38,313 nt of DNA from a virus. Of this stretch, positions 162 to 38,207 are shown piece by piece. Both the position numbers and the translations under genes were made by a program. Numbering within the stretch: position 1 is the first letter of the stretch; every line of letters begins with the position of its first letter. The DNA lies in IMG/VR virus record IMGVR_UViG_3300021139_000049, positions 1 through 38,313 of that record; one strand, written 5' to 3'. Below the pieces are notes generated by a model, which did no database searches, was not told the DNA's origin, and was given only the letters and a program-made list of their open reading frames with translations.

Positions 162-407
162 ATGATCCTCACCCAGCAGGCCCTGTGCGCCTGGCTTCGG
201 AGCCAGGGCCTCAGGATCTCCCCCAGCACCATCCACCACTGCATCCAGGCTGGCATGCCCACGGTCCAGCTCCCCTGGATCACTAAGCCCCGCTTCGACC
301 AGGACCAAGTGTGGGCCTGGATCATCAGCACCCGCGAGGCCAACCCCTTGACCCTTGCGGTCAGGGATAAGATTGTCAGGCAGTCCAGGAGGCGGGCCAG
401 TGCCTAG
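162..407 (+). CDS. Small DNA-binding protein, excisionase (RDF) candidate
   Basis: This 81-residue protein has a helix-turn-helix-like N-terminal part (about residues 3-32, LTQQALCAWLRSQG then SPSTIHHCIQAGMP) followed by a wing-like stretch and a basic tail (RDKIVRQSRRRASA). The pattern resembles MerR/excisionase-type winged helices that bind at att sites and set the direction of recombination. A Shine-Dalgarno AGGAG lies about 10 bases before the ATG. Its stop overlaps the GTG start of the integrase by 8 bases, so the two are probably co-translated, as expected for a xis-int pair. It could instead be another small regulator; the role rests mainly on position and size. Confidence 0.6.
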   Translation: MILTQQALCAWLRSQGLRISPSTIHHCIQAGMPTVQLPWITKPRFDQDQVWAWIISTREANPLTLAVRDKIVRQSRRRASA

Positions 408-1407
408 GTGGTTGACCAAGCGCGGCAAGGCCGGGATCTGGCACTACCGCTTCAATGCCGGTGGTCGGGACTTCAGCGGCAGCACCGAGGCCACAGACCT
501 TCCCACGGCCAAGCTCGTGCTAGAGGAGGCCCGCCGCCAGGCCATCCTCATGGGGATAGGGCAAGGCAAGGCCCCCAGCCTGGGTGAGGCCATCGACGGC
601 TGGACTGAGACCCGGGGCCGCCTGGTCAGCACCTGGCATCTGACCGCAGCGGGCAAGGCCCGGACCTCCCTGGGGAAGCTGGTGAAGCTACCCCTGGACC
701 GGATCACCACCTCCGAGGTGCAGGGCTGGATGGCAGACTATCTGGCCGACCACAGCCCCGCCTCCACCAACCTGGTGCTCCGCTACCTCAAGCTCTGGAC
801 CCGCTGGGCACTGGCCGAGGGCCTGATCCGGGTCATGCCGTTCAAGGTCTCCCCCATCAAGGTCCAGGAGAGGCAGCGCCCCGTGGCAGACCTGACCCTG
901 CTGGACAAGGTATGCGAAAGCGCGACCAACCCGCAGATCCGAGCGGCCCTCGCCCTCTGCATGACCTGTGGACTTCGGGAGGCCGAGCTGCTCCAGGCCC
1001 GCTGGGAGTGGCTCCAGGATGGGGCGCTCGTCATCCAGGGCCGCACCAAGTCCAAGCTGATCCGGGTCATCCCCCTAGCTGAGGTCGCCCGGGTGGCCCT
1101 GCTCCAGATGCTGGCCGCGCAGCAGCTCGGCCCCGCGCAGCTCCCCCGCTTGGGGCTGATGTTCCCTGGCCGAAAGGGGAAGCCCCACTCCCAGGGGTGG
1201 CTCCGCCAGGCGCTCAAGCGTTCCGAGGTCAAGGGCCTGGGTATGCACCGGCTGCGGGCCACCTTCGCCACGCTGCACCTGCGGGCCAAGACACCCCTGA
1301 AGGAGGTCCAGGAGATGATGGGCCACGCCAAGCCGACCACGACCCTGCTCTACCAGGAGACCAACCTGGAGGACAAAAAGAAACGCCAGCGGGATCTATG
1401 GGCTTGA
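400..1407 (+). CDS. int: Tyrosine integrase (tRNA-Asn type attachment)
   Basis: This is a 335-residue phage integrase that should recombine attP with attB. From the GTG start at 400 the catalytic set is complete: Arg193 (CGLREAEL), Lys217 or 219 (GRTKSKL), His283-x-x-Arg286 (HRLR), His309 (MMGHA) and the nucleophile Tyr318 (LLYQ). Residues about 60-150 form the SAM-like core-binding domain, and the N-terminal 40 residues look like an arm-binding domain. The frame is open upstream to a TTG at 355, but the GTG at 400 has a perfect AGGAGG (387-392) seven bases upstream and is preferred. The gene ends two bases before the left 19-bp arm repeat and about 75 bases before the tRNA-Asn core, the usual int-attP arrangement. 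Confidence 0.93.
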   Translation: MPRWLTKRGKAGIWHYRFNAGGRDFSGSTEATDLPTAKLVLEEARRQAILMGIGQGKAPSLGEAIDGWTETRGRLVSTWHLTAAGKARTSLGKLVKLPLDRITTSEVQGWMADYLADHSPASTNLVLRYLKLWTRWALAEGLIRVMPFKVSPIKVQERQRPVADLTLLDKVCESATNPQIRAALALCMTCGLREAELLQARWEWLQDGALVIQGRTKSKLIRVIPLAEVARVALLQMLAAQQLGPAQLPRLGLMFPGRKGKPHSQGWLRQALKRSEVKGLGMHRLRATFATLHLRAKTPLKEVQEMMGHAKPTTTLLYQETNLEDKKKRQRDLWA

Positions 1408-4046: not shown

Positions 4047-4982
4047 TTAAACGGTCGAGCTGTCGGTGAGCAGTCCGAGGGAGGCCAGAGCGGTGAGGAG
4101 GGAGGCCAGCGCGGCGTTGCCGCCCCGGGAGCCAGTGACGGTGGGCTTGGTGGCTGGTGTGGCCCCGAAGAATCCGATGAGCGTGGTGGCCGCGAAGGCG
4201 ATGCCACCGGAAGCGTTCAGGGCGAAGCGGGTGATGCCGTTCTGGGTGAAGTAGATCGGGATGTTCACCGTGGGGCCGAAGTCCATCTCGGCCGCATCGC
4301 AATAGAGGTATCCCTTCTGGGTTCCGGCCACCTTGAAGGAGAAGACCTGGCCCCCGGATGCGAGGTCGAAGTTCGTGACCTTGCTGACCGTGACGGCCGC
4401 GGTGGTCCAGGAGATGACCGCGGTCATGGTGCCCGTGCCAGGAGAAGACCCGGTGTAGCCGAGGCCCCAAGTCCCCGCCCCGGTCCTTCCCATCACCCCG
4501 TAGTTGGCCCCGCCGTCACTCATGTAGAAGGAGCCGGAGACCGTGGTGGTGCCCGCGTCCACGTGGTAGGTGCCCGAGAGCCCCCCGATGCCAGAGTCCC
4601 CGGCCTTGTTGATCGGCGTGAAGCCCAGGGCCGCCTGGCGGGAGGTGTCCACCGGATGCACGTGATCACCCTTGGCCCAGGCAGCGCTTGAGCCAGCGGC
4701 CCCCACTCCGTTCATCGTCGGGGTGCTGGTGTAGGCCACGGGAACGCCCGCGCTGGTGATGTAGCCGGCCGGATTGGTGGCGTTGTACGGGGTGAACCCG
4801 AGGGCCGTGGTCACGTCCGAAGAGGTGATGATCCTCCACACCCGGGTCCCCAGGCCATCGTCGTGCAGGTAGCCCAGGGCGCTCGGGGGGACATTCGGGA
4901 TGGAAGGCGAGGGAAGGGAATACTCATGCCCTGGGAGGTCGGTGGTCAGCCCTGCGTCCGGCGGCAGCTGGTCGCTTCTCAT
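4047..4982 (-). CDS. Tail fibre protein
   Basis: This 311-residue protein has repeated fibre motifs ALGFTPYN (about residue 60) and ALGFTPIN (about residue 118), with the HVHPVDTSRQAALGF block between, as widely found in phage fibres and collar fibres. The rest is Gly/Thr/Ser-rich short strands, and the C-terminus (FFGATPATKP, then a leucine/alanine-rich end) resembles the conserved end of many phage fibre proteins. The start overlaps the stop of the giant ejection protein (ATGA). It lies directly before the spike, so the two probably act together in adsorption: one as a shaft or secondary fibre, the other as the binding spike. No fibre-assembly chaperone gene follows. Confidence 0.8.
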   Translation of the reverse strand: MRSDQLPPDAGLTTDLPGHEYSLPSPSIPNVPPSALGYLHDDGLGTRVWRIITSSDVTTALGFTPYNATNPAGYITSAGVPVAYTSTPTMNGVGAAGSSAAWAKGDHVHPVDTSRQAALGFTPINKAGDSGIGGLSGTYHVDAGTTTVSGSFYMSDGGANYGVMGRTGAGTWGLGYTGSSPGTGTMTAVISWTTAAVTVSKVTNFDLASGGQVFSFKVAGTQKGYLYCDAAEMDFGPTVNIPIYFTQNGITRFALNASGGIAFAATTLIGFFGATPATKPTVTGSRGGNAALASLLTALASLGLLTDSSTV

Positions 4983-7900
4983 CGGTGGCCCCCTTCCGCA
5001 GGGTTCTTACCGAGGAGGGTGTTCTTGACCAGCTCGTAGTTGTTGGCCGGCCGCTCCTGGCCCGAGGAGACCTGCTGCAGGTAGTGGGCGGACTTCACGG
5101 CCTGGGTGGTGCCCCCGATCCCGAAGGTGTGGCCGAAGGCCTTGGCGGCGTCGAAGCCAGCCTTGGACCACTCGGCATCCCCATGTGCGGCCTTGTCCAG
5201 GCTCATGAGGGCCTGGGTCTGCTCCTCGAAGATCCCGAACATGGGGGAGAACTTGAAGTCCTTCCCGCTCTTCCCGTTCTTCAGGGTGTCCGCGATGTTC
5301 CGGATCAGGGGGATGGAACTGGCCCCGAAGTGCAGGGATTCCAGGATGGCCCACTCGGCTTTGTTCTCGTCATCGGCGGGGCCCCGGTTCTTGATGTAGG
5401 CACCGAAGACGGCTGGGATCAGGAGGGTAAGGAGGGTAGTGGAAGCTGCTTGCTTGGTGGCGCCCAGGAAGTTCCCGTTGCCCGCCATCACGCTCGCCTT
5501 GTGGGCGGAGTCCTCCATGTTGGCGTAGAGCTTGTTGAAGTGGCCGTAGTACATGGTGGCCATCTTCCAGAACTCGTGGTTCCGCATGATCGGGGCGAGG
5601 TCTTTGGCACCGGCCGCCGGGAGGGTCATGCGCACGGCGCGGTCCCCTTCCAGCACGGCCCGGGCGGCGTCCCCGTGGGTGGCTAGGCCCTGGCGGTAGG
5701 CCCCGAGCCAAGTGGGAACGCCCATGGCGATATCAGCAAGGGTGATTCCATGGAAAGCAAACTTCATCACTTCTGAGTTGGCCTTCATCACGGGAAGCAC
5801 CAGACTGCGCACGGTCTTGTTGGCGGAGGCGGCCAGACTGTCCGTGAGCTCGCCCCGCATGACCCCCCCCATGTCCCGGTCGTAGTTCTCGGCTCGGTTG
5901 GCCATCTCACCAGAGAGCTCGCGGACCATCTTGGTCGTGTCCATGGGGTGGGCAATGAACTCCCCCAGGGCCCTGAGGAGGTGCCCGCCTTCCACGTAGT
6001 GCTGGGCCCGGGTGATGCCCGAGAACTGGACCACGGTGGTCGCCAGGTTGAAACCCATGGTGGCCACGACCGCATTGGCGCGCAGCTGCATCATCCAGCG
6101 GGAGACCTCGCCCAGTCCCTGGACCGCGGACCCGTTCCGGTTGTTGGCCTGATAGCGGAGCCAGGGCATGAACTGCTTCTCGTACTCGGGCCCCAGGGTC
6201 TCCCGGAGGGTGTCCCGGACGCGCTGGTCCGTCAGCAGGCGGTTGGAGTCCACCACGAACTCGCGGTAGGCGAGGTCCTTGGCGATCTTGGTGGCATGCT
6301 GGGTCACGATCTGCTCGAAGTCCAGCAGCAGGGGATAGGTGGCCTTGGTCCGCTCCTTGGTGTAGCCGGTGGAGGTGGTGGCGCGGACGTAGCCCGAGCC
6401 GCTGTCCATGACGCCCTTGCCCGCGTCTATGTCCTGGCGCATGCCCACACCGCTCTCGCCGGGGTCGGCGACCAGGGGGTAGTATCCGCCCTTGAGGTGG
6501 GCGATCACGTTCCCCTTCTCGTCCACGGCGGCGAAGGGCCGGGCCTCAACCCACTGGGGCTCCAGGCCGGTCATCTTGCGCTGCAGGTCCCCGATCTCAG
6601 GCCGCAGGGATTCGAAGGCATCCCAGACCTTCTGGGCGAACTCCCACTCGGGCGCCGTGAGCTTGGCCAGGCCCCGGCCGATCTCGGCCTGGGATTCCAT
6701 GGAGGTCCAGCCCCGGCCATGAAGGAGCTTCTCCCAGTTCTGTTCGTTGCCCCGGTTCAGGGCGATGGAGAGGAGCTGCTTCCGGTTCAGGTCCCGGTCC
6801 ATGCCCGGGAGCCGGATGCCGGTGAAGTCGAGCATGGAGTGCTTGATCTCGGTGGGGATCGCGGCCAGGGCCTCCTTGATGGGGATGGCCAGGCGCGCAG
6901 CCAACTCGTGCTCCTTGTTCTGCGCTTCGCTGGCCCGGTTCATGAAGTGCTCGTGCCAGGGGCCCGTGACATCCCCGCCGTCCAGCCGGTCCATGAGCTG
7001 CTCCATGGGGAGCAGGGCGGCGTTGGCGGAGCGCGCCTTGGCGGCCAGCCTCTCCCCGGCGGTCAGGGTGGACCCGCTCAGGGGAACGGCCTTGCTCTTC
7101 ATGTTCAGGGTGGCGGTGTTGGTGAGGTTCTCCACGGCCACGTCGAAGTCGATGGCCTTGCCCTCGGCGGTGACCTTGTTGGCGCGCCGGGCGATGGTCT
7201 CGATGTTCTTCAGGGCATCCTTCACAGCCCGCAGCTCAGAGAGGGGCACCTCGCGCCAGTTCTTGGCCTGGCCCTCGCGGTATAGGCTGGGGTCGATGGC
7301 GACCTCCTCCCCGGCGGCGCTCTGGTCCGCGGCCCACTCGGCGAGGCTCTTCCGGTTGTCCAGCTCCTTGTTGGTGACCTGGGAGAACTCGTACCGCCCT
7401 GCCAGCGCGTTCCACTGGTCCCGGTAGTCGCTCCCAGCCTTCCCCAGCATGGCCTGGAACTTCCCGGCCTGGCCGTCCTTGCCGTAGGCGGCGATGTCCC
7501 CGGCCTCGGTCTTGGCCTTGGTCGACTCCAGGTAGAGGAAATGGTTCAGGAGCTCCTTCTGCTTGGCGTCCCCGGCGGTCGCATAGTCGTCTCCGGCCAT
7601 GGCCTTGAACGCCTCGCGGGAAGCCTGGCGGCTGGCTACGAGGTAGCGGTAGGGCTCCAGGTCTCGGACAGTGGTCTGCTCCACCAGCTGCTGCGCTGCG
7701 TCCTTGAAGGTCTGGATCGGGGGAACCTCCTGCACGGTGGCCCGGGCCTGGGCCTTGCCCTCCTTCACCTGGGCCTGCAGCTTGCGCAGGGCCTGCAGCT
7801 CGGTCATCAGGGCCTTCTCGCGGTCCGCGTTGTGCAGGACCTCCAGGGCCGTCTCCGCAATGGAACCGTCCGTCAGCATGTCGCCGTGGCGCTGCTTCAT

Positions 7901-10900
7901 GAGCAGGTCCGCATCGGCCTTGATCCGCTCGTTCCGCGGGGCCATGCGCTTGAGGGTCTGGACCAGCTGGTCCCCGGAAGCGAAGCCCAGAACCTCGGCG
8001 GCAGACTGGGCATCCATCCCGCCCTCCTTCGCGTAGGTCCAGCGGGCCCCGTGGCGGGGCAGGTCCTTGAGCACGTCCTCGCCGAACTGCGCGACCAGGG
8101 CATCCTTGTTCAGCTTGATCGGGGTCCCCTCGACGGTCTTCCCCTCGGAAAGCGCCTTGAAGGCCACCTGGGCAGGGTCCGCGTCGATGTCCGCAGCCAC
8201 CTCTTCCCGGGCCTTGGCCAGCTCGTCCTTCCACCACTGGAGCCGGTCGCGCTGCGCCTCGCGGTTAAGCTTCTCGACCAGGGCGCCCTTGGCGTTCTCG
8301 ATCTCCCGCTCCTTCGTGGCCTTGTAGGCTTCGAAGGCGGCGTCCGTCATGCCAGCCTTCTCGGCGGACTCGAAGATCGGCTGCTCGCCGCCCAGCTGCT
8401 CTCGGGCCTGCTCGATCTCCCGGTCGCTGGCATAGATGCGGTCGAACACCCCGCGGACATCATCCGTGAGGTGCACGTTGAGGTCGGTGAGGCGCTGGTA
8501 GACGCCGGAGAGCCAGGTCTTAAAGCGGGCGAAGGGCCCCTGCAGGGCCTGGCTGGGGGCCTTGCCCTCGCGCAGGTAGGCCTCGTGAGCGCGCGCCAGC
8601 CACTCCTGATCCTCGGTGGTGAGCTCGGCCACGCTGCTTTTGCCCCGGGCCTCCAGGATGGTCTGCAGGTCTGCCTTGGTCTGCTCGGTGGCCTCGGGCC
8701 GCTCCGCCAGGTCCCCGAGCATCTTGACCCAGAAGTGGCCCAGCTCGTGGACGAAGGTCGAAGCGTTGGCCTTCTCCAGGATGGAGATCGAAACCTTGTT
8801 GTCCGGACCGAAGGTGATGGAGCCGCGGTTGTCCCCGGGCTCGTGGTTCAGACTTACTTGATTCCCTTCATCGCCAGGCCGTGCTTCAAGGCCTTGACCA
8901 TCGCCTCGCCCGAGGCCTTCCTGGTTTCGGGTGTCCAGGGCGCCGAGCGAATCTTGGGGGAGGCTTCTGTCGAGGAAGTCTCGGGCTTCTTGGCTGATCG
9001 GGAATCTTTGACCGGAGTGGTCTTCATAACCGTGCTCCCTAACCCTATGGTAGGCCTGAACGGCGCTCTGCGCAACGTCAGGGCGTGAATTGAGGTGCTC
9101 CACCAGGTAGTCCCGGGTGGCGTGGTCGGGGATGAGGGTGATGTCGGAAGGCTTGCCGTTGTTGTCCACGATGTTGAAGTGCACAAGCGGGTCGTGGCCG
9201 TAGTCGTCCATCAGGGTAAGGATCGTCTTGGGGGCCTCCTCGTGCGCGCCCACGAGCTGGTCGATGCCGACGAAGCGCCCCTTCTCCTCGGGGTCCGTGT
9301 GGCCTCGGAGGATGGTCCCCTCCACGGCCTTCTCCACGTCCCGCAGGGTGAAGTTGATCTCCACGGGCCGGGCGTTCTCGCCATCGTGGGCGGTGTCCAG
9401 GGCCAGGTCGATCATCTTCTTGGAGGAGCCCAGGTCCTTCATCGTGCCGTCAACGATGGTGTGGGCGTCCGAGTAGAGGTCGAAGGCCTTGGCCGCGGAG
9501 CCCTTCCCGGACCCTCCGCCGCCGGCCATGAAGACCACCTTCTCGTTGGGGCCCTGGATCGGCTCGGCCATCCGCTCCGCGTAGATCCGCTTGATGAAGG
9601 CGGAGACCTCGGAGTGGTGGTGCGGGACGGTGGCGGTGGGGTTCTCTCGGTAGTTCGGGTCCAGGCGCCGGGCGATGTCCACGTTCAGGAGCTTCCCGCC
9701 CTTGGTGTCGGGCAGGGCGTTGTATTCCTCCACGGTGCGGGGGTCGTTGTAGAGGTCGTGAGCCTCTTGGCGAATCTGGGCCGGGGTCTTCTCCACAGGC
9801 TGGAAGAGACTCTGCGCCTCCTCTGCCGGCGCAGCCTTGGGCTTGCCCTGCATCTCCTTGATGGAACCCTTCACGGCGCCCAGGGCCTGCTGGCGGATGG
9901 CCTCAGCCTCCTTGGCGCTGCGGGCCTGCTGGAGCTTGGTGGCGAACTCGTTGATCACGTCCCCCACGCCCGCGAGGTTCTTCATGGCCTCGAAGGTGCC
10001 CAGGGTCGTCCCGGCATCCTGCTTGATCCCGGCCGCGGCCTCCTTGTCCACGGTGGCGGCCTTGCCCACGGCCTCCTCGTAGCGGCCGCCGGTGAGGACC
10101 TGCCCGACCGTCTTGTCCGTGCGTAGCTTCGACCGGATGAAGCGGACCAGGTCCGTCTGCTGCTCCAGGGTGGACTGGTAGGACTCCTCAGAGCCGAAGA
10201 GCCCCTCCTCCTGGGTGGTGGTCACCTGGGAGCCCTTGATCCGGTCCAGCATGTCCCGCCAGAAGGGGCTGGTGATGTCCTCCGGGCCTTTCTTCTTGAG
10301 GACGGTGTTCAGTTCCTGGAGGGCCACACCCTGCTGCTCAGGGGTCAGGCCAGCCTTCCCGGTCTCGACCGCCAGGCGCTCGAACTCGGGGTCGCTCTTG
10401 GCCGCTGCGTACCATGGTTCGGACAGGCGGGAAAGCGCGAGGCCGTTGGTGACCACATCCTTGTTTGTGGGAATACCCAGGCGCTCAAGGTCGCCCAGGG
10501 TGTACTTCCCATCCCGGAAGAGGCTCGCAGCGTCCATGGCCGTGCCCTTGCCGGCGGCGATGTTCTGAATGGCTCCGGCGATCTTGGCTTCCTGGGCGTT
10601 CTTCGCATCGATGAATCGGACCTTGAGCCGATCCACGCCCAGTTTCTTCGCCAGGTCGTAGCGGTTGTGCCCGTTCACCACGTAGGTCTTGCCATCCGCA
10701 GGATCGCGCCAGGCGCTGATGGTGCCCGCGCTGTCTGGGTTCCAGACATTCACGCCCGCAAGGGCGCCGGATGCGCCGGTCTCCTTGTTCACCTGGTTGA
10801 CCCCAGTGGTCTCGTTCCGGCCCTTGTATTGGAACCGGCCAGGGTCCGCGGTGAGCTCGGAGGTGGGGATGGTGAAGTCCTCCCCGCTCGGCCGCAAGCC

Positions 10901-12718
10901 GGGGATGTCCTTGAAGGTGTCCGGTACGGTTCCGGTGAAGGGCTGCATGGGTGAGCCTTCCCCACCCGGCCCAGTGATGTTCAGGCCGTACTTCTCGAAC
11001 TGCTTGATCGGGTCCAGGCCCTCCCGCATGGACTGGGTCACAAGACCCCGAGCCAGGAGGGTCGCATTGTCCTCGGCGATAGCCGGAGTGAAGCGTCCGG
11101 TTGCCTCCAGGCGGTTCTGGATCTCTGGCTTGAGGGAGGTGAAGGCCCGGAACTGCTCGTCGGGGAGTTCAGTCTTGGCCTGCTCCACCATCTGAGCCAC
11201 ACGCTCGGGAGCGTTGGCCTCGTGCTCGGCCGCCTCGCGGATGGTCGTCCCGCCGGGCCGGACCCGAATGTCTTGGGCCAAGGCATTCATCTGGTCGGGC
11301 TTCAACTTGGCCAGGAAGTCAGCGGTGGGGATGACCACATCGGTCCCGGAGGTGATGGCCTCGGCGTAGTTCTTGGCACCTAGGCGGTCTGCTTCCTGGG
11401 CTGGGTCCAGACCCTGCTCCTGGAAGAAGGTGGTCAGCCTGTCAGCTGGGATCATCACGTTTTCGACGTTGGAATCCCGGAGGATCCCGCTCACCACATC
11501 ATGGAAGGCCTCGGGCGATCGGGCCTTGAGCGAGGAGGTAGAGGCGGCGCTGATCAGGCGCGGGAGCGTGTTCCCGACCTCAAACCCTGTCATGGAGACG
11601 ATGCCTTGGGGCAGACCAGACCAAAGAGGCGCCTCAGATCCATGCAACCGCCCCAGCGCGTTCTCCGCGGCCGTGACACCGGTCCCAAGCGTGACACCAC
11701 GCTTGCCGGCCTCTAGGATCTGGCCAAGGGCTGAGTTAGCCTGTGCAGGGTGTGGGACCTTGTTCATCAAGGCGTAGTTGATCCCAGCGCTCCCGAGACC
11801 CTCAGCCAAAGCAGTGACAGGGTCAGCACCCTCCTCGATGGCGCGCTGGTACTTCTCCTGGCCAGCGTTGGCCACAGTCGCCTGCATGCCCGCCTTCCCG
11901 GTCATGGCGAAGAAGGCGGCAGCCCCAGGGATTGAGGCCACAGTGTTCAGGGTGTCGCGGCCATACCAGTGGTAATCAGGGTTTGCGAATGGTTTTCCGG
12001 TGGTGGGGTCCATCAGGTATTGAGAAGGGCCTGTCTTTACGGGAGCCGCCCATCCCTGCCTCAGGGTGTTGGTTCCTTCCTGGATGTCGCCGCCGGTGGT
12101 CCCCGCGTCGAGCGGGTTTTTGATGGCTTCCCAGATCCTGCGGGCGGTCGTGTCGAGAGTCTGTGAGGTGGTTAGGAAATCCGCCAGGGAGCCAACAGTC
12201 TCGGCCGCCAGGGATGGGATGGTTGACGCGGTCTCGGCGGTCGAGAGGATGGGACCGCTGAATCCCATGCCAGCCGTAGAGGCCAGCGAGTAGGCCTCAT
12301 TCCTGGGCTTGTTGTGATTCAGCACCCGCAAGCGATCATTTTTGATCACTTCCCACTGGGCATCGGTGACGCCCTGGGGCCTTCCCTGGGATGCTCCTTC
12401 TATCTCCTGAAGGGTAGGAACATCATCATGCGCCACGGCAGCATTGCTGGGATCACTGAGCCATGACGCCGCCCGGGGGGCGTTGTTGATGAAGGCGTTG
12501 TAATCGAAGGCGTTCACCTTCGCCGCCGTGGCCAGGGGCTTCAGGTTGTCGTTGGCATAAGCCTGGGTCGTCCCCAACTGCTGGGCCGCGGCGCGCGCCT
12601 GAGCCTGCTGGTCGGGGTTCTGGCCCACCGCGTAGCCCATGGAGGACCGTAGCTGCTGGGCCTTGGCGTCCATCTCGGCCGCTTGGCTGAAGACCTGATC
12701 AAGCGGGTCCTGGCTCAT
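4979..12718 (-). CDS. Giant internal virion (ejection) protein, gp16-like and polyvalent
   Basis: This is one continuous frame of 2579 residues, about twice T7 gp16 (about 1300). It occupies the last ejection-protein slot after gp13-, gp14- and gp15-like genes, so it is probably packaged in the core and delivered into the cell. Domains seen: a ParB/DdrB-like region at about 615-730 (VVNGHNRYDLAKKLG); a P-loop at about 1064-1075 (MAGGGGSGKGSAAKAF) followed by VDGTMKD and a GRFVGIDQL block, like Zeta-type kinases; and a zinc-metallopeptidase motif HELGH at 1324-1328. Then come long charged helical segments to about 2000. The end, from about 2200, has hydrophobic stretches (STTLLTLLIPAVFGAY near 2426). 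No lytic transglycosylase motif is evident at the N-terminus. Family assignments come from motifs only; activities are inferred. Confidence 0.85.
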   Translation of the reverse strand: MSQDPLDQVFSQAAEMDAKAQQLRSSMGYAVGQNPDQQAQARAAAQQLGTTQAYANDNLKPLATAAKVNAFDYNAFINNAPRAASWLSDPSNAAVAHDDVPTLQEIEGASQGRPQGVTDAQWEVIKNDRLRVLNHNKPRNEAYSLASTAGMGFSGPILSTAETASTIPSLAAETVGSLADFLTTSQTLDTTARRIWEAIKNPLDAGTTGGDIQEGTNTLRQGWAAPVKTGPSQYLMDPTTGKPFANPDYHWYGRDTLNTVASIPGAAAFFAMTGKAGMQATVANAGQEKYQRAIEEGADPVTALAEGLGSAGINYALMNKVPHPAQANSALGQILEAGKRGVTLGTGVTAAENALGRLHGSEAPLWSGLPQGIVSMTGFEVGNTLPRLISAASTSSLKARSPEAFHDVVSGILRDSNVENVMIPADRLTTFFQEQGLDPAQEADRLGAKNYAEAITSGTDVVIPTADFLAKLKPDQMNALAQDIRVRPGGTTIREAAEHEANAPERVAQMVEQAKTELPDEQFRAFTSLKPEIQNRLEATGRFTPAIAEDNATLLARGLVTQSMREGLDPIKQFEKYGLNITGPGGEGSPMQPFTGTVPDTFKDIPGLRPSGEDFTIPTSELTADPGRFQYKGRNETTGVNQVNKETGASGALAGVNVWNPDSAGTISAWRDPADGKTYVVNGHNRYDLAKKLGVDRLKVRFIDAKNAQEAKIAGAIQNIAAGKGTAMDAASLFRDGKYTLGDLERLGIPTNKDVVTNGLALSRLSEPWYAAAKSDPEFERLAVETGKAGLTPEQQGVALQELNTVLKKKGPEDITSPFWRDMLDRIKGSQVTTTQEEGLFGSEESYQSTLEQQTDLVRFIRSKLRTDKTVGQVLTGGRYEEAVGKAATVDKEAAAGIKQDAGTTLGTFEAMKNLAGVGDVINEFATKLQQARSAKEAEAIRQQALGAVKGSIKEMQGKPKAAPAEEAQSLFQPVEKTPAQIRQEAHDLYNDPRTVEEYNALPDTKGGKLLNVDIARRLDPNYRENPTATVPHHHSEVSAFIKRIYAERMAEPIQGPNEKVVFMAGGGGSGKGSAAKAFDLYSDAHTIVDGTMKDLGSSKKMIDLALDTAHDGENARPVEINFTLRDVEKAVEGTILRGHTDPEEKGRFVGIDQLVGAHEEAPKTILTLMDDYGHDPLVHFNIVDNNGKPSDITLIPDHATRDYLVEHLNSRPDVAQSAVQAYHRVREHGYEDHSGQRFPISQEARDFLDRSLPQDSLGALDTRNQEGLGRGDGQGLEARPGDEGNQVSLNHEPGDNRGSITFGPDNKVSISILEKANASTFVHELGHFWVKMLGDLAERPEATEQTKADLQTILEARGKSSVAELTTEDQEWLARAHEAYLREGKAPSQALQGPFARFKTWLSGVYQRLTDLNVHLTDDVRGVFDRIYASDREIEQAREQLGGEQPIFESAEKAGMTDAAFEAYKATKEREIENAKGALVEKLNREAQRDRLQWWKDELAKAREEVAADIDADPAQVAFKALSEGKTVEGTPIKLNKDALVAQFGEDVLKDLPRHGARWTYAKEGGMDAQSAAEVLGFASGDQLVQTLKRMAPRNERIKADADLLMKQRHGDMLTDGSIAETALEVLHNADREKALMTELQALRKLQAQVKEGKAQARATVQEVPPIQTFKDAAQQLVEQTTVRDLEPYRYLVASRQASREAFKAMAGDDYATAGDAKQKELLNHFLYLESTKAKTEAGDIAAYGKDGQAGKFQAMLGKAGSDYRDQWNALAGRYEFSQVTNKELDNRKSLAEWAADQSAAGEEVAIDPSLYREGQAKNWREVPLSELRAVKDALKNIETIARRANKVTAEGKAIDFDVAVENLTNTATLNMKSKAVPLSGSTLTAGERLAAKARSANAALLPMEQLMDRLDGGDVTGPWHEHFMNRASEAQNKEHELAARLAIPIKEALAAIPTEIKHSMLDFTGIRLPGMDRDLNRKQLLSIALNRGNEQNWEKLLHGRGWTSMESQAEIGRGLAKLTAPEWEFAQKVWDAFESLRPEIGDLQRKMTGLEPQWVEARPFAAVDEKGNVIAHLKGGYYPLVADPGESGVGMRQDIDAGKGVMDSGSGYVRATTSTGYTKERTKATYPLLLDFEQIVTQHATKIAKDLAYREFVVDSNRLLTDQRVRDTLRETLGPEYEKQFMPWLRYQANNRNGSAVQGLGEVSRWMMQLRANAVVATMGFNLATTVVQFSGITRAQHYVEGGHLLRALGEFIAHPMDTTKMVRELSGEMANRAENYDRDMGGVMRGELTDSLAASANKTVRSLVLPVMKANSEVMKFAFHGITLADIAMGVPTWLGAYRQGLATHGDAARAVLEGDRAVRMTLPAAGAKDLAPIMRNHEFWKMATMYYGHFNKLYANMEDSAHKASVMAGNGNFLGATKQAASTTLLTLLIPAVFGAYIKNRGPADDENKAEWAILESLHFGASSIPLIRNIADTLKNGKSGKDFKFSPMFGIFEEQTQALMSLDKAAHGDAEWSKAGFDAAKAFGHTFGIGGTTQAVKSAHYLQQVSSGQERPANNYELVKNTLLGKNPAEGGHR

Positions 12719-14532
12719 TTGGCCGCCTTGTAGGTGCCATCGTCATTGAGCAAGCCCTGCTTCTTCGCCAGGAAGTAGGCCTGGGTGATGGCGTTCCGAG
12801 AGAGGTTCGGATTGCGCAGCTGGGCGAGCTTGATGAAGGCCACTGGGACCTGGTCCTCCACCTTGAAGGCCGGGGCCTTGGTCTCGCTAGTCCACCAGTG
12901 ATTCGAGGGATCCGTGATGATCGGCTGGATCTCGGCATCGATCAGCTTCTGGGTGTTCTCCTGGCTCCAGGGCTGCTGAGATGCGGACTGGATGAGCATG
13001 ATCTTGGCGTGGAGGTCCCCCACCAATGACCGAGAGGCATCATTCTCCTTGTCGGTGATCAAGCCGGCGCGCCGAAGGGAGCTCGTCAGCAGGTCATGGT
13101 CCACGGCGTAGTGCTGGACCTTGGCCTGCCCGAGCTGCATGTCCCCGACGGTGCTAACAAGGAGGCCGGTCATCTGCTTCCCAAGGCCGTCCGCATTGGA
13201 ATAAATGTCGTTCTTGGTGAGCGTCCCCGCCCTGGCCTTGGTCAGCAGGTCATTGAATAGGAAGCCACGATCAGCGATCTGCTGAGGCGTCAGGTTCTCC
13301 TGGTTCGCCTCCGCCTGGCGCTGCTTGTCGATGGCGTGGAGCTTTTCCTGTAGGTCAGCCTGGACGCTATCTGGCATCGCCAGGACGTTGTCCATGCTCA
13401 TGATGGCCCGCGTGGACTGCCCATCGAGCTTGGCCTTGACGGCGGTCCCAAAGAAGTCGGTCTGGGTCTGGCGGACTTCCTGGGCCTTGGCCGCCTGTTG
13501 CTCCCGCAGATGCTCCTTGGCCAGGTTGAAGACCTCGGGCGGAAGGTTGCGGTCGCGCAGATCGGCGAGCAGGGCGCTGTAGCTCGGGGGTGCCGCGAAA
13601 GGGTTGGCCTGCTCCACTTCCCCGTTAGGGTTCGGGGGCCCTGCATGGCCCAGGGCTGGGTTAGTCGCCTTGTCCCAGATGTCATTGGCCGCATCCTGGG
13701 CCTGCTGCTGGTTCGAAGCGTTCTTCGCTAGGTTGCTCATCTGGGCGATGGCTCCAGGCGTCATCTCCGAGGTGTGCTCCTTCAGGTAGGCCACGGCATC
13801 CTGAGGGCGGCCGGCCGTGATTAGGCCCTGGGCGATGGTGGTGTGGATCGGGCTCGCGGCCCCGACCTGCAGCGCCAGGTAGCTCGGATCGTCCTTGTTC
13901 ACGGGGATGCCGGTCAGAGTCGCTAGGTTGTCCGCCCCTGCTCGAGCCTGATGGAGGAAACTGGCCGCGATGTCGAACTGGCCGTTTGCCGCCGCGGTGG
14001 CTGCGGACTGGTTGGCCATCGTGATCGAGTCCTGCGCGTTGCCGACCTGGTACCCATGAAGCTGGCGGTCCTGGTGGGCCTGGACCTGGGGCATCACCTG
14101 CATGCTGTAGGCCGTGGCCATGTTGTCGATCATGGCCTGCTGGTTGGGGTTCTTCGCCGCGCCCCGGGCGTTGGCGACGAGGCCCTTCATGTCAGATCCG
14201 ACCTTGCCCACGAGATCAGTGGTGTCCTGGGACATGTCCGAAGGGATGTCACCCGTGGGCTGGCTGATCACGTCCTTCCCCAGAACCTGGGTGGCTTTCT
14301 GGAGGATCTGCTGGCCCGGCTTCTGGACCTGGTTCAGGAAGATGTCCGTGGCCACGGTCCGGTCGGCTTCGTTCTGGATGTGGGCCAGCTGCCCGGCGGC
14401 GCCCTGGATCTTCTCGCCCAGCTCCGCGCCGAAGGCATCGCCCGCCCCACGAAGGATCCGGTGAGGGTCAAGCTGGGCGTCCGGCGTCTGTTGGGCGGCG
14501 ACCTGGGGAGCGTTGTAGACCGGAATCTGCAT
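12715..14532 (-). CDS. Internal virion protein, gp15-like
   Basis: The 605-residue protein is mostly helical, rich in Gln and Ala, with no signal peptide and no enzymatic motif. Its N-terminus (MQIPVYNAPQVAAQQ) and its place between the gp14-like and giant gp16-like proteins fit the T7 gp15 role: a tube-forming core protein ejected across the periplasm ahead of DNA. Tetratricopeptide-like helical pairs are suggested at about 180-260 (LITAGRPQDAVAYLKEH). Its stop overlaps the next start in ATGA. Assignment is by synteny and composition. Confidence 0.75.
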   Translation of the reverse strand: MQIPVYNAPQVAAQQTPDAQLDPHRILRGAGDAFGAELGEKIQGAAGQLAHIQNEADRTVATDIFLNQVQKPGQQILQKATQVLGKDVISQPTGDIPSDMSQDTTDLVGKVGSDMKGLVANARGAAKNPNQQAMIDNMATAYSMQVMPQVQAHQDRQLHGYQVGNAQDSITMANQSAATAAANGQFDIAASFLHQARAGADNLATLTGIPVNKDDPSYLALQVGAASPIHTTIAQGLITAGRPQDAVAYLKEHTSEMTPGAIAQMSNLAKNASNQQQAQDAANDIWDKATNPALGHAGPPNPNGEVEQANPFAAPPSYSALLADLRDRNLPPEVFNLAKEHLREQQAAKAQEVRQTQTDFFGTAVKAKLDGQSTRAIMSMDNVLAMPDSVQADLQEKLHAIDKQRQAEANQENLTPQQIADRGFLFNDLLTKARAGTLTKNDIYSNADGLGKQMTGLLVSTVGDMQLGQAKVQHYAVDHDLLTSSLRRAGLITDKENDASRSLVGDLHAKIMLIQSASQQPWSQENTQKLIDAEIQPIITDPSNHWWTSETKAPAFKVEDQVPVAFIKLAQLRNPNLSRNAITQAYFLAKKQGLLNDDGTYKAAK

Positions 14533-25789: not shown

Positions 25790-25852
25790 CACTGGCGGGG
25801 ATTCGAACCCCTCCTTCCCACGATCTCGGCCAGCGAGCGGAGTCGAACCGCC
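25790..25852 (-). other. tRNA-like remnants downstream of tRNA-Tyr
   Basis: Two T-arm-like elements stand in a row on the minus strand: GGCGG, loop TTCGACT, CCGCT (25836-25852), then GGGG, loop TTCGAAT, CCCC (25797-25811). The second is enclosed by a seven-base acceptor-like stem CGCTGGC/GCCAGTG (25829-25835 with 25790-25796). Between acceptor and T arm are only about 17 bases, with no anticodon arm and no CCA. They look like decayed tRNA genes or a small tRNA-like fold. Confidence 0.45.
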
Positions 25853-25855
25853 TGA

Positions 25856-25940
25856 TGGTGCCAGTCCCAGGGATCGAACCTGGTTGAGTCGCCTCGCCGG
25901 ATTTACAGTCCGGTGCCCCGACCATTGAGGCGCGACTGGC
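25856..25940 (-). tRNA. tRNA-Tyr (GTA)
   Basis: The 85-base gene folds as a class II tRNA. Acceptor strands GCCAGTC and GACTGGC pair perfectly; the anticodon stem is CCGGA/TCCGG with loop CTGTAAA, giving anticodon GTA (tyrosine). The long variable arm of 13 bases contains GAG/CTC, the T arm is CCAGG, TTCGATC, CCTGG, and the encoded end is ACCA. All canonical parts are present, so it is probably functional. It may help translate TAT/TAC codons in virion genes. It lies in the leftward transcript between small packaging-region genes and the lysis cassette. Confidence 0.93.
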
Positions 25941-25942
25941 TT

Positions 25943-25992
25943 GGTTCCCGCCAGCCTGCGCGGGATCTGGAGGCTTCTCCCTTTCGGGAACC
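25943..25992. other. Inverted repeat in the spacer upstream of tRNA-Tyr
   Basis: GGTTCCCG (25943-25950) and CGGGAACC (25985-25992) are perfect inverted repeats ending three bases from the tRNA-Tyr 5' end. On the minus strand the interior holds AGCCT/AGGCT, which can form a second stem. The wider 118-base spacer (25941-26058) carries no convincing gene. It may be a processing leader or a further decayed tRNA, but a canonical T loop is missing. Confidence 0.4.
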
Positions 25993-36716: not shown

Positions 36717-36931
36717 GCACCTTCAAGGAATCCGCCGCGCGCATGGCCGAGCGCCTGCGCCTCATGAAGCGCCTGCAGCAGCTCCACCGGGAGATGGGGG
36801 ACGAGGAAGTTCTGCTCCCCATCCAGGACCTTTTCAGCGCTGGGGACCAAGCTGCCCTGGATGCCTACGAGCGCGAACTGAATGAGCATCTGGGGAACCG
36901 TCCTCTGCCCTTCGAGCAGGTGGCCTCATGA
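36713..36931 (+). CDS. Small helical early protein
   Basis: The GTG start at 36713 overlaps the exonuclease stop. The 72-residue product (MSTFKESAARMAERLRLMKR) is helical and charged, ending LNEHLGNRPLPFEQVAS. It is coupled to the next gene by ATGA. Function unknown; perhaps an accessory of the exonuclease/annealing pair. Confidence 0.6.
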   Translation: MSTFKESAARMAERLRLMKRLQQLHREMGDEEVLLPIQDLFSAGDQAALDAYERELNEHLGNRPLPFEQVAS

Positions 36932-37185
36932 TCGCCGCCGAAGCCCTGGCCCTGCACCGCTCCCGCCGCCCGGAGTGCCCGCGACCCTTCATCTCGACCA
37001 GCCCCGAGGCGATCCAGTTCCAGGCCGACCTGCAGGCCTGGTGCAACACCCTGGAGCGCCTGGAGAGCAAGGCCCACTGCGAAGCCTTCGGGCTGACCCC
37101 GCTGGACCACAACCCGAAGTGCTCCCCCAAGACCGAGGACTACTACTTCCGCGAGCCCATCCGGCGCCGGCGGAGGGTCGCATGA
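36928..37185 (+). CDS. Hypothetical early protein
   Basis: The 85-residue protein (MIAAEALALHRSRRPECPRP) has an acidic/aromatic middle (FQADLQAWCNTLERLES) and an Arg-rich end (REPIRRRRRVA). It is coupled by ATGA to the following recombinase gene. No family is recognised; the basic end suggests nucleic-acid contact. Confidence 0.6.
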   Translation: MIAAEALALHRSRRPECPRPFISTSPEAIQFQADLQAWCNTLERLESKAHCEAFGLTPLDHNPKCSPKTEDYYFREPIRRRRRVA

Positions 37186-38207
37186 GTCTCTTTTCTCAAA
37201 GCGAAGAGAACCTTGAGATGGTGCCAGCGCTGACTCTGGACCGGGTTCCTACCCTGAACCCCGACTCACTGATGCCCCAGGTCATCGAGGCTTTTCTGAC
37301 GAGCCAGATCCCGAACAAGAAGACGGCTCGCGGCTACCGGCGCCACATCCTGGCTGCCGTGGACATGATGGCAATCGAGCGCCTGTCCGACCTCCAGCCC
37401 GTACACCTTATGGACTACAAGGCCGATTTGATGAACACCATGCGGTTCGGCATGGCCACTAAGGCTCAAGCACTGATCGCCCTCCGGTCATTCCTTAGCT
37501 GGGGGGCGGCGCTTCGCGGGCATGACCTTCAAATGGTGCAGGTCAATTACCTGCTGCCTGTCCCCAAGGTGAAGGTCATCACCCCGCACGAGATTCTCAG
37601 CGACAAGGAGATCACCCGCTACCTGGCCGCAGCGAAGCTGCAGGGCAGGCGGGACTATGCGCTCCTGGTCGTGGCTCTTGGATCAGGTGTTCGCGTGGCC
37701 GAGCTGGTCAACCTCGACGTGCAGGATATCCGCTTCGATGGCATGGGCTCCGTGATCCACGTCCGCCAGGGCAAGGGCGGGAAGGACCGCATGGTCCCCG
37801 TGAGGAAGGAAGTCCGGAAGGCCGTAGACGCCTACCTGGATGAGACGGGCCGCAAGCCTACCGACAAGGGCCCCTTGTTCCTCAGTGAAGACCGGGCCAT
37901 GGGAAGCCGTGAAAGCTGGAGGCTGACCACGAAATCGGCCAGCCGGATCGTGAAGGCCCTGGCTGAAGCAGCAGGCATCCGAAAACGAGTCTCACCCCAT
38001 GCTCTTCGACACACCTTCGCCGCCGCAACCTTCATGCACAGCCGGAATGCCGTCTTCGTGATGAAACTCCTCGGTCACGCCAGCATCGCAACAACCATGC
38101 GCTACATCGACCACCTAGTTGACTCCGACCTTCGCAATGCTTCGCCGGCCTTCCTGGTCGGAGGCAAGGGACCGAAGGTTTCTCTCTCACTCAAGAAGGC
38201 CGCCTAG
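37182..38207 (+). CDS. Second tyrosine recombinase, XerC/D-like
   Basis: The 341-residue protein has a complete catalytic set: Arg171 (GSGVRVAEL), Lys198 or 201 (QGKGGKDR), His273-x-x-Arg276 (HALR), His299 (LLGHASIATT) and Tyr308 (RYID). The core follows XerC/D more closely than phage tRNA-type integrases. The ATG at 37182 overlaps the previous stop; longer frames are shadows. Encoded at the end of the ERF/exonuclease operon and far from the att core, it may resolve dimers, act at a dif-like site, or replace the first integrase. It differs strongly in sequence from the recombinase at 400. Confidence 0.88.
   Translation: MSLFSQSEENLEMVPALTLDRVPTLNPDSLMPQVIEAFLTSQIPNKKTARGYRRHILAAVDMMAIERLSDLQPVHLMDYKADLMNTMRFGMATKAQALIALRSFLSWGAALRGHDLQMVQVNYLLPVPKVKVITPHEILSDKEITRYLAAAKLQGRRDYALLVVALGSGVRVAELVNLDVQDIRFDGMGSVIHVRQGKGGKDRMVPVRKEVRKAVDAYLDETGRKPTDKGPLFLSEDRAMGSRESWRLTTKSASRIVKALAEAAGIRKRVSPHALRHTFAAATFMHSRNAVFVMKLLGHASIATTMRYIDHLVDSDLRNASPAFLVGGKGPKVSLSLKKAA

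What the first reader, a model, noticed from the sequence alone, without database searches (positions are those of the whole stretch)
4979..12718. A 2579-residue ejection protein with ParB-like, Zeta-kinase-like and HELGH peptidase modules
The gp16 position holds a protein about twice the usual size, carrying a ParB/DdrB-like segment, a P-loop (GGGGSGKGS) with Zeta-like downstream motifs, and a HELGH zincin motif before a gp16-like end. If injected, it would deliver several enzyme activities to the host before any phage gene is expressed, resembling the polyvalent proteins of phages and conjugative elements. This is the best candidate for an under-described system in the window.
Basis: partly seen in the sequence, partly recalled or inferred. 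Interest (0 to 1): 0.72.

Follow-up and report, generated by a model that had tools for sequence, protein, structure and literature searches.

The report
Phage ejection protein with cargo slot
This phage gene encodes a giant protein that is probably injected into the host with the viral DNA; its shell is shared with many phages, but one internal slot holds exchangeable enzymes, here a DNA-partition-like module and a cell-wall-poisoning-type kinase, so it is an unusual member of a known class of injected phage proteins.

Summary
The ORF is real: 12718..4979 (-), 2579 aa, last in the internal-virion-protein block of a temperate BPP-1-like podovirus. It is a "polyvalent protein" (LPD22; Iyer 2017), homologous to BPP-1 Bbp10, and of ordinary size for that family (24 of 76 relatives are longer). 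Comparing 136 proteins shows one conserved shell (LPD22, N-core, zincin plus helical C-core) with a single slot of 16 to 2340 aa just before the zincin. The slot carries swappable ART, PBECR, GNAT, GGDEF, RadC, MuF_C or Zeta modules; two Achromobacter prophages with 94.6% identical C-cores carry unrelated cargo. Catalytic motifs are strictly conserved; models support the kinase fold (Z 22) and the ParB fold. The "gp16-like end" has weak fold support (T7-like ejectosome proteins rank 1, 2 and 4, Z about 6). Injection, cleavage and substrate are untested. Novelty: new architecture of a known kind, plus a clearly defined exchangeable cargo slot.

The parts
4979..12718 (-). whole gene, 2579 aa, BPP-1 Bbp10-type polyvalent ejection protein
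   Evidence: PHROG 9880 over 1286-2572 with E 0
12374..12655 (-). LPD22 domain, residues 22-115
   Evidence: Pfam PF18834, E 5.6e-15; present in nearly all relatives
10949..11569 (-). conserved N-core, residues 384-590
   Evidence: own HMM, found in 82 proteins of the panel
8828..10975 (-). cargo slot, residues 582-1297 (about 717 aa between the cores)
   Evidence: slot length 36-2340 aa in 81 viral-collection and phage proteins, 16-812 aa in 55 genome proteins
9854..10909 (-). ParB-like module, residues 604-955: N-domain 612-723 with GHNR at 683-686, HTH 724-828, helical tail
   Evidence: AF2 model, VIA Z about 10 to ParB and Noc; the GH of GHNR in 43 of 43 nonredundant relatives
8918..9769 (-). 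zeta-type kinase module of the permuted ng_zeta1 subclass, residues 984-1267; D1014, K1072, R1138, R1148
   Evidence: PDB 6EPH E 4.2e-17, VIA Z 22.2, 3.1 A over 254 residues, invariant in 64 of 64
8429..8827 (-). zincin-like segment, residues 1298-1430: HELGH 1324-1328, E1372 and E1379 in the second helix
   Evidence: HExxH in 66 of 66 aligned rows, E1372 and E1379 in 67 of 67; helices in the model
4982..8827 (-). conserved C-core, residues 1298-2579, mostly helical
   Evidence: BFVD matches to polyvalent and structural proteins
6125..7012 (-). residues 1903-2198, weak fold resemblance to T7 gp16 and PhiM1 ejectosome protein
   Evidence: VIA Z 6.6, 6.2 and 5.4, ranks 1, 2 and 4 of 612 chains; below the level that is safe alone
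5393..5449 (-). hydrophobic segment, residues 2424-2442, possible membrane contact
   Evidence: hydropathy of 1.6 or more in 51 of 67 relatives

Best explanation
It is a polyvalent ejection protein of a temperate BPP-1-like podovirus. The shell (LPD22, N-core, zincin plus helical C-core) is the part that works in the virion and in DNA delivery, in the position of T7 gp16. One slot between N-core and zincin carries exchangeable payload enzymes. Here the payload is a ParB-like nucleotide- and DNA-binding module followed by an ng_zeta1-type sugar-nucleotide kinase. Most likely the protein enters the host with the DNA, the adjacent zincin may cut it to free the payload, the kinase phosphorylates UDP-sugar cell-wall precursors (or a related sugar nucleotide) to restrain the host early in infection, and the ParB-like module binds incoming DNA or a nucleotide. 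Shown: ORF, domain anatomy, folds of kinase and ParB module (as predicted models), conservation of catalytic residues, slot exchange. Inferred: presence in the virion, injection, cleavage, catalysis and substrate.
For: Shared shell and variable slot in 81 viral-collection and phage proteins and 55 genome proteins. Cargo tallies of known effector families. Clean cargo replacement between L281 and L282, C-cores 94.6% identical, flanking DNA collinear on both sides. Zeta: 6EPH match and conserved D, K, R, R against the residues of PMC5923241. ParB fold. HExxH plus Glu conserved. Gene order after phrog_308 and phrog_418 internal virion proteins and the structural-lysozyme position. T7-like ejectosome proteins rank 1, 2 and 4 in the fold re-alignment.
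Against: No virion proteomics for this phage was found. No activity data. Contacts that make ng_zeta1 prefer UNAM (K59, N75) are R1017 and T1030 here, so the substrate may differ. No adjacent antitoxin-like gene was found. The gp16 fold match is below the safe level (Z 6.6). The zincin gave no significant PDB fold hit.
Confidence: 0.6

Rival explanations
1. The kinase phosphorylates something other than cell-wall precursors, for example NAD or nucleotides, and serves counter-defence rather than cell-wall arrest. The structural relative AvrRxo1 is, from general knowledge, a NAD kinase.
For: AvrRxo1 is the next best fold (Z 11.6) after ng_zeta1, and polynucleotide kinases follow. The UNAM-specific contacts are changed. 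The slot is often filled by ART domains, which act on NAD.
Against: ng_zeta1 scores twice as high (Z 22.2) and shares the rare permuted order with the Asp before the P-loop.
Confidence: 0.2
2. The payload acts in the producing cell late in infection, or protects the lysogen from superinfection, and is not a delivered effector.
For: The phage is temperate, with integrases in the window. The gene lies among the late structural genes. No test of delivery exists here.
Against: The payload is fused inside a conserved virion-protein-type shell in every relative examined, which a cell-internal enzyme would not need. Related giant proteins, such as N4-type virion RNA polymerase, are ejected (PMC10925440, PMC5512222).
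Confidence: 0.15
3. Slot contents are degenerate passengers with no activity; only the shell matters.
For: Slots can be nearly empty, 16-22 aa, in several prophages, so cargo is dispensable for the shell.
Against: Catalytic residues of the zeta module are invariant in 64 of 64 phage sequences, and the ParB GH motif is kept in 43 of 43. Slots repeatedly hold known enzyme domains.
Confidence: 0.05

Closest known systems
Bordetella phage BPP-1 Bbp10 and relatives (Pseudomonas AF_016, HU1, Cobetia Carin1 gp32, Caulobacter BL94 gp037)
   Same: Same shell, gene order, LPD22 and zincin-bearing C-core.
   Different: Their slots carry PBECR1, LPD23, PBECR5 or ART-PolyVal domains; none of these has the ParB plus zeta pair.
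Polyvalent proteins (Iyer et al. 2017, PMC5512222)
   Same: Several unrelated enzymatic domains in one phage protein, LPD22, zincin, late-gene context; zeta-like kinases are mentioned there in conjugative elements and fused to MuF.
   Different: The passages read do not describe zeta inside this ejection shell, the permuted subclass, or a single exchangeable slot; its supplements were not read.
ng_zeta1 toxin of Neisseria gonorrhoeae (PDB 6EPH, PMC5923241)
   Same: Permuted zeta kinase: catalytic Asp before the P-loop, P-loop Lys, two Arg (D1014, K1072, R1138, R1148).
   Different: UNAM-specific contacts are not kept; no antitoxin gene seen; embedded in a large phage protein.
ParB / Noc family
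   Same: N-domain and HTH arrangement with a GxxR-type motif (GHNR).
   Different: No ParA partner sought; no Pfam ParB or DdrB-ParB match; function in phages unknown.
MuF polymorphic toxins of temperate phages (PMC12226406)
   Same: A phage-protein shell with variable toxin modules.
   Different: There the toxin is C-terminal and countered by immunity proteins; here the cargo is internal and no immunity gene was found.
N4-type virion RNA polymerase ejection protein (phage DEV, PMC10925440)
   Same: Giant multidomain protein identified as an ejection protein.
   Different: No RNA polymerase match here; homology was not tested directly.

Membership tests
Polyvalent proteins | several domains of unrelated activity in one polypeptide | tested here: met
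   zeta kinase, ParB-like, zincin-like
Polyvalent proteins | LPD or other catalogued associated domain | tested here: met
   LPD22 E 5.6e-15
Polyvalent proteins | phage late structural gene context | tested here: met
   internal virion, tail and head genes upstream
Polyvalent proteins | transfer into the host with the DNA | not testable with these tools
   needs virion proteomics and an injection assay
Zeta kinases, ng_zeta1 subclass | fold | tested here: met
   6EPH Z 22.2, 254 residues, 3.1 A
Zeta kinases, ng_zeta1 subclass | Asp before P-loop, P-loop Lys, two Arg | tested here: met
   D1014, K1072, R1138, R1148; invariant in 64 of 64
Zeta kinases, ng_zeta1 subclass | K59 and N75 contacts to the UNAM carboxyethyl group | tested here: not met
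   R1017 and T1030 at the aligned positions; bears on substrate preference, not on fold or subclass
Zeta kinases, ng_zeta1 subclass | partner antitoxin gene | tested here: inconclusive
   downstream 311-aa gene reads as tail-fibre-like and is absent from the near relative L002
Zeta kinases, ng_zeta1 subclass | UDP-sugar kinase activity and toxicity | not testable with these tools
   biochemistry needed
ParB/sulfiredoxin superfamily | ParB N-domain fold with conserved Arg motif | tested here: met
   ParB and Noc matches Z about 10 within model residues 7-234; G, H and R of GHNR invariant in the five-sequence alignment
DdrB-type ParB of polyvalent proteins | match to a family profile | tested here: inconclusive
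   no Pfam ParB or DdrB-ParB match up to E 1; weak phrog ParB matches
Zincin metallopeptidases | HExxH plus downstream Glu in the next helix | tested here: met
   HExxH 66 of 66; E1372 and E1379 67 of 67, in model helix 74-90
Zincin metallopeptidases | fold match to a solved zincin | tested here: inconclusive
   no significant PDB hit for the 1200-residue model; the domain was not folded alone
T7 gp16-type ejection protein | last gene of the internal virion protein block | tested here: met
T7 gp16-type ejection protein | sequence similarity to gp16 | tested here: inconclusive
   none found in PDB sequences with a 67-row profile
T7 gp16-type ejection protein | fold similarity of the helical core | tested here: inconclusive
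   ranks 1, 2 and 4 are T7 or PhiM1 core proteins, Z 6.6, 6.2, 5.4; Foldseek E 0.84
MuF polymorphic toxins | MuF N-terminal domain with C-terminal toxin | tested here: not met
   no MuF match in the window protein; cargo is internal

The most novel reading that the evidence does not exclude
BPP-1-type podoviruses use their last ejection protein as a general payload-delivery platform: one internal slot next to a protease accepts whole enzyme modules, is exchanged without touching flanking genes, and delivers them into the host before any phage gene is expressed. The window's version would deliver a permuted zeta kinase that stalls cell-wall precursor synthesis together with a ParB-like DNA- or nucleotide-binding module.
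Probability: 0.4. Interest if true: 0.75.

Novelty: new variant of a known kind. Interest (0 to 1): 0.5.

Why it matters
If true, phage virions of a common group carry interchangeable injected effectors much like bacterial secretion systems. The slot, with natural empty forms and natural swaps between nearly identical prophages, makes the open question of what injected polyvalent proteins do directly testable, one module at a time. It also places a cell-wall-poisoning type kinase in an injected phage protein.

Tried and rejected
Antitoxin or immunity gene next to the protein: the downstream 311-aa product is fibre-like and absent from near relative L002; no NCBIfam or PADLOC match. Zeta segment by single-sequence search: nothing in phages or PDB; it needed a profile. 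ParB segment against PDB by profile: no ParB hit by sequence; only the fold search showed it. T7 gp16 by sequence: none. No solved zincin appeared in the fold lists for the 1200-residue model. PHROG_21 'portal' label on the ParB part: read as a naming artefact, because ParB-like modules occur behind portal-type proteins (L177 has Portal_Mu at 1e-94). Lack of an SLT domain in the upstream 605-aa protein as something linked to zeta: not specific; 81 of 121 panel loci gave no SLT hit with a small four-sequence HMM. One mixed alignment of all ParB and zeta rows misplaced the zeta rows, so a tested subset was used. Literature on virion proteomics of this family: none found in the searches made.

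Full report
Observation. The window is a 38,313-base virus record. The ORF 12718..4979 (-) encodes 2579 aa without interruption and starts on an ATGA overlap with the upstream gene. PHROG scans place it downstream of head, tail-tube and internal virion protein genes (phrog_308, phrog_418) and show two integrases, so this is a temperate podovirus.

Family. Pfam finds LPD22 at residues 22-115 and a partial match to Zeta_toxin; PHROG 9880 covers 1286-2572. tblastn in annotated phages finds the conserved part, about 1284-2570, in BPP-1 Bbp10, Pseudomonas AF and HU1, Cobetia Carin1, Caulobacter, Vibrio and Xanthomonas phages. In six of these the gene encodes 2039 to 3209 aa and sits in the same place. 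Their slots carry PBECR1, LPD23, PBECR5 or ART-PolyVal, or nothing that Pfam names. The class was described as polyvalent proteins (PMC5512222), and the Bbp10 peptidase-like segment as CLCA_X (PMC3650047).

Slot. From 80 viral-contig loci plus the earlier ones, 81 proteins contain both an N-core (window 384-590) and a C-core that starts at the zincin; the gap between them is 36 to 2340 aa, median 363, window 717. Of 76 slot sequences Pfam names ART-PolyVal in 19, PBECR5 in 8, LPD3 in 5, Zeta in 4, PBECR1 in 3, MuF_C, GGDEF and GNAT in 2 each, RadC, LPD1, LPD5, LPD23 and PBECR3 in 1 each, with some unknown DUFs. A genome scan gave 55 more, from genomes of Pseudomonas, Stenotrophomonas, Paraburkholderia, Achromobacter, Mesorhizobium and others, with slots of 16 to 812 aa, several nearly empty at 16-22 aa, and a similar cargo list. 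Sharing of slot content rises with core identity, yet about half of the pairs at 60-80% core identity share nothing detectable. Achromobacter L281 and L282 are 94.6% identical in the C-core, but one slot holds an ART-type module and the other a GNAT-type module (read by eye from the sequences); nucleotide similarity is continuous for 11.7 kb before and 4.3 kb after the slot. The slot, not a neighbouring gene, is what is exchanged there.

Kinase. Own HMMs find zeta in five slots. An alignment of these hits gonococcal ng_zeta1 (PDB 6EPH) at 4.2e-17. ng_zeta1 is a permuted subclass whose catalytic Asp56 precedes the P-loop Lys115, with Arg175 and Arg181 in the active site (PMC5923241). The aligned window residues are D1014, K1072, R1138 and R1148, invariant in 64 of 64 phage sequences. 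K59 and N75, which are thought to explain the UNAM preference of ng_zeta1, are R1017 and T1030. The AF2 model of 598-1295 (pLDDT 82.9) matches 6EPH at Z 22.2 over 254 residues and canonical zeta toxins at about Z 11.

ParB-like module. The 600-1000 segment has relatives in Prochlorococcus podoviruses and other phages and in hundreds of viral contigs. Its GH motif is kept in 43 of 43 nonredundant relatives. The model matches ParB and Noc across both the N-domain and the HTH. In one phage of the same shell (L225, same contig as L102) zeta precedes ParB, the reverse of the window order; in L204, L241 and L242 the two occur together in shorter proteins. Pfam did not name a ParB family, so the DdrB subtype is left open.

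Peptidase and core. HExxH is present in all 66 aligned rows, and E1372 and E1379 in 67 of 67; in the 1295-2494 model (pLDDT 86.8) they lie on successive helices after two strands, close to the arrangement described for polyvalent zincins (PMC5512222). PDB gives no significant fold for this model. In the VIA re-alignment the best chains are T7 core protein (Z 6.6), PhiM1 ejectosome (Z 6.2) and, fourth, T7 again (Z 5.4); this fits gp16 but is below the level that is safe alone. BFVD shows the same core in many phage proteins labelled polyvalent, structural, nuclease or crystallin-like.

Mechanism. Most likely the shell works in the virion and during DNA entry, and the slot carries payload. Release by the adjacent zincin, kinase action on UDP-sugars and binding of DNA or nucleotide by the ParB-like module are inferences. 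A giant ejection protein with an enzyme domain is known for an N4-like phage (PMC10925440). MuF toxins are a parallel case with C-terminal cargo and immunity proteins (PMC12226406).

Verdict. The kind is known; the architecture (ParB-like plus permuted zeta) and the sharply defined exchangeable slot appear new within what was searched.

Noticed in passing
L225 (same contig as L102), L204, L241, L242: ParB-like and zeta modules recur together in one protein, in either order; in L204 behind a weak portal-type match. This suggests a travelling pair.
   Followed up: partly
L174, L175: The ParB-like module also lies in giant proteins of Autographiviridae (2563 aa in Prochlorococcus phage P-SCSP1g, about 1485 aa in S31C1).
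   Followed up: partly
window 12715-14532 (-): The protein in the structural-lysozyme position has no SLT domain, unlike HU1, BPP-1, Carin1 and AF; many relatives have a similarly short version.
   Followed up: partly
window 25798-25960: A tRNA-Tyr gene (25856-25940) next to two more T-arm-like sequences, perhaps remnants of other tRNA genes.
   Followed up: no
window 355-1407 (+) and 36882-38207 (+): Two integrase-family genes at the two ends of the record.
   Followed up: no
window 4047-4982 (-): A 311-aa fibre-like protein between the ejection gene and the tail spike, missing in the near relative L002.
   Followed up: partly
L093-L172: Zeta relatives of the same subclass are mostly stand-alone phage genes of about 300 aa.
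   Followed up: partly
L262: A contig filed under a Rickettsia endosymbiont MAG resembles Stenotrophomonas prophages in slot length and core; possible contamination.
   Followed up: no
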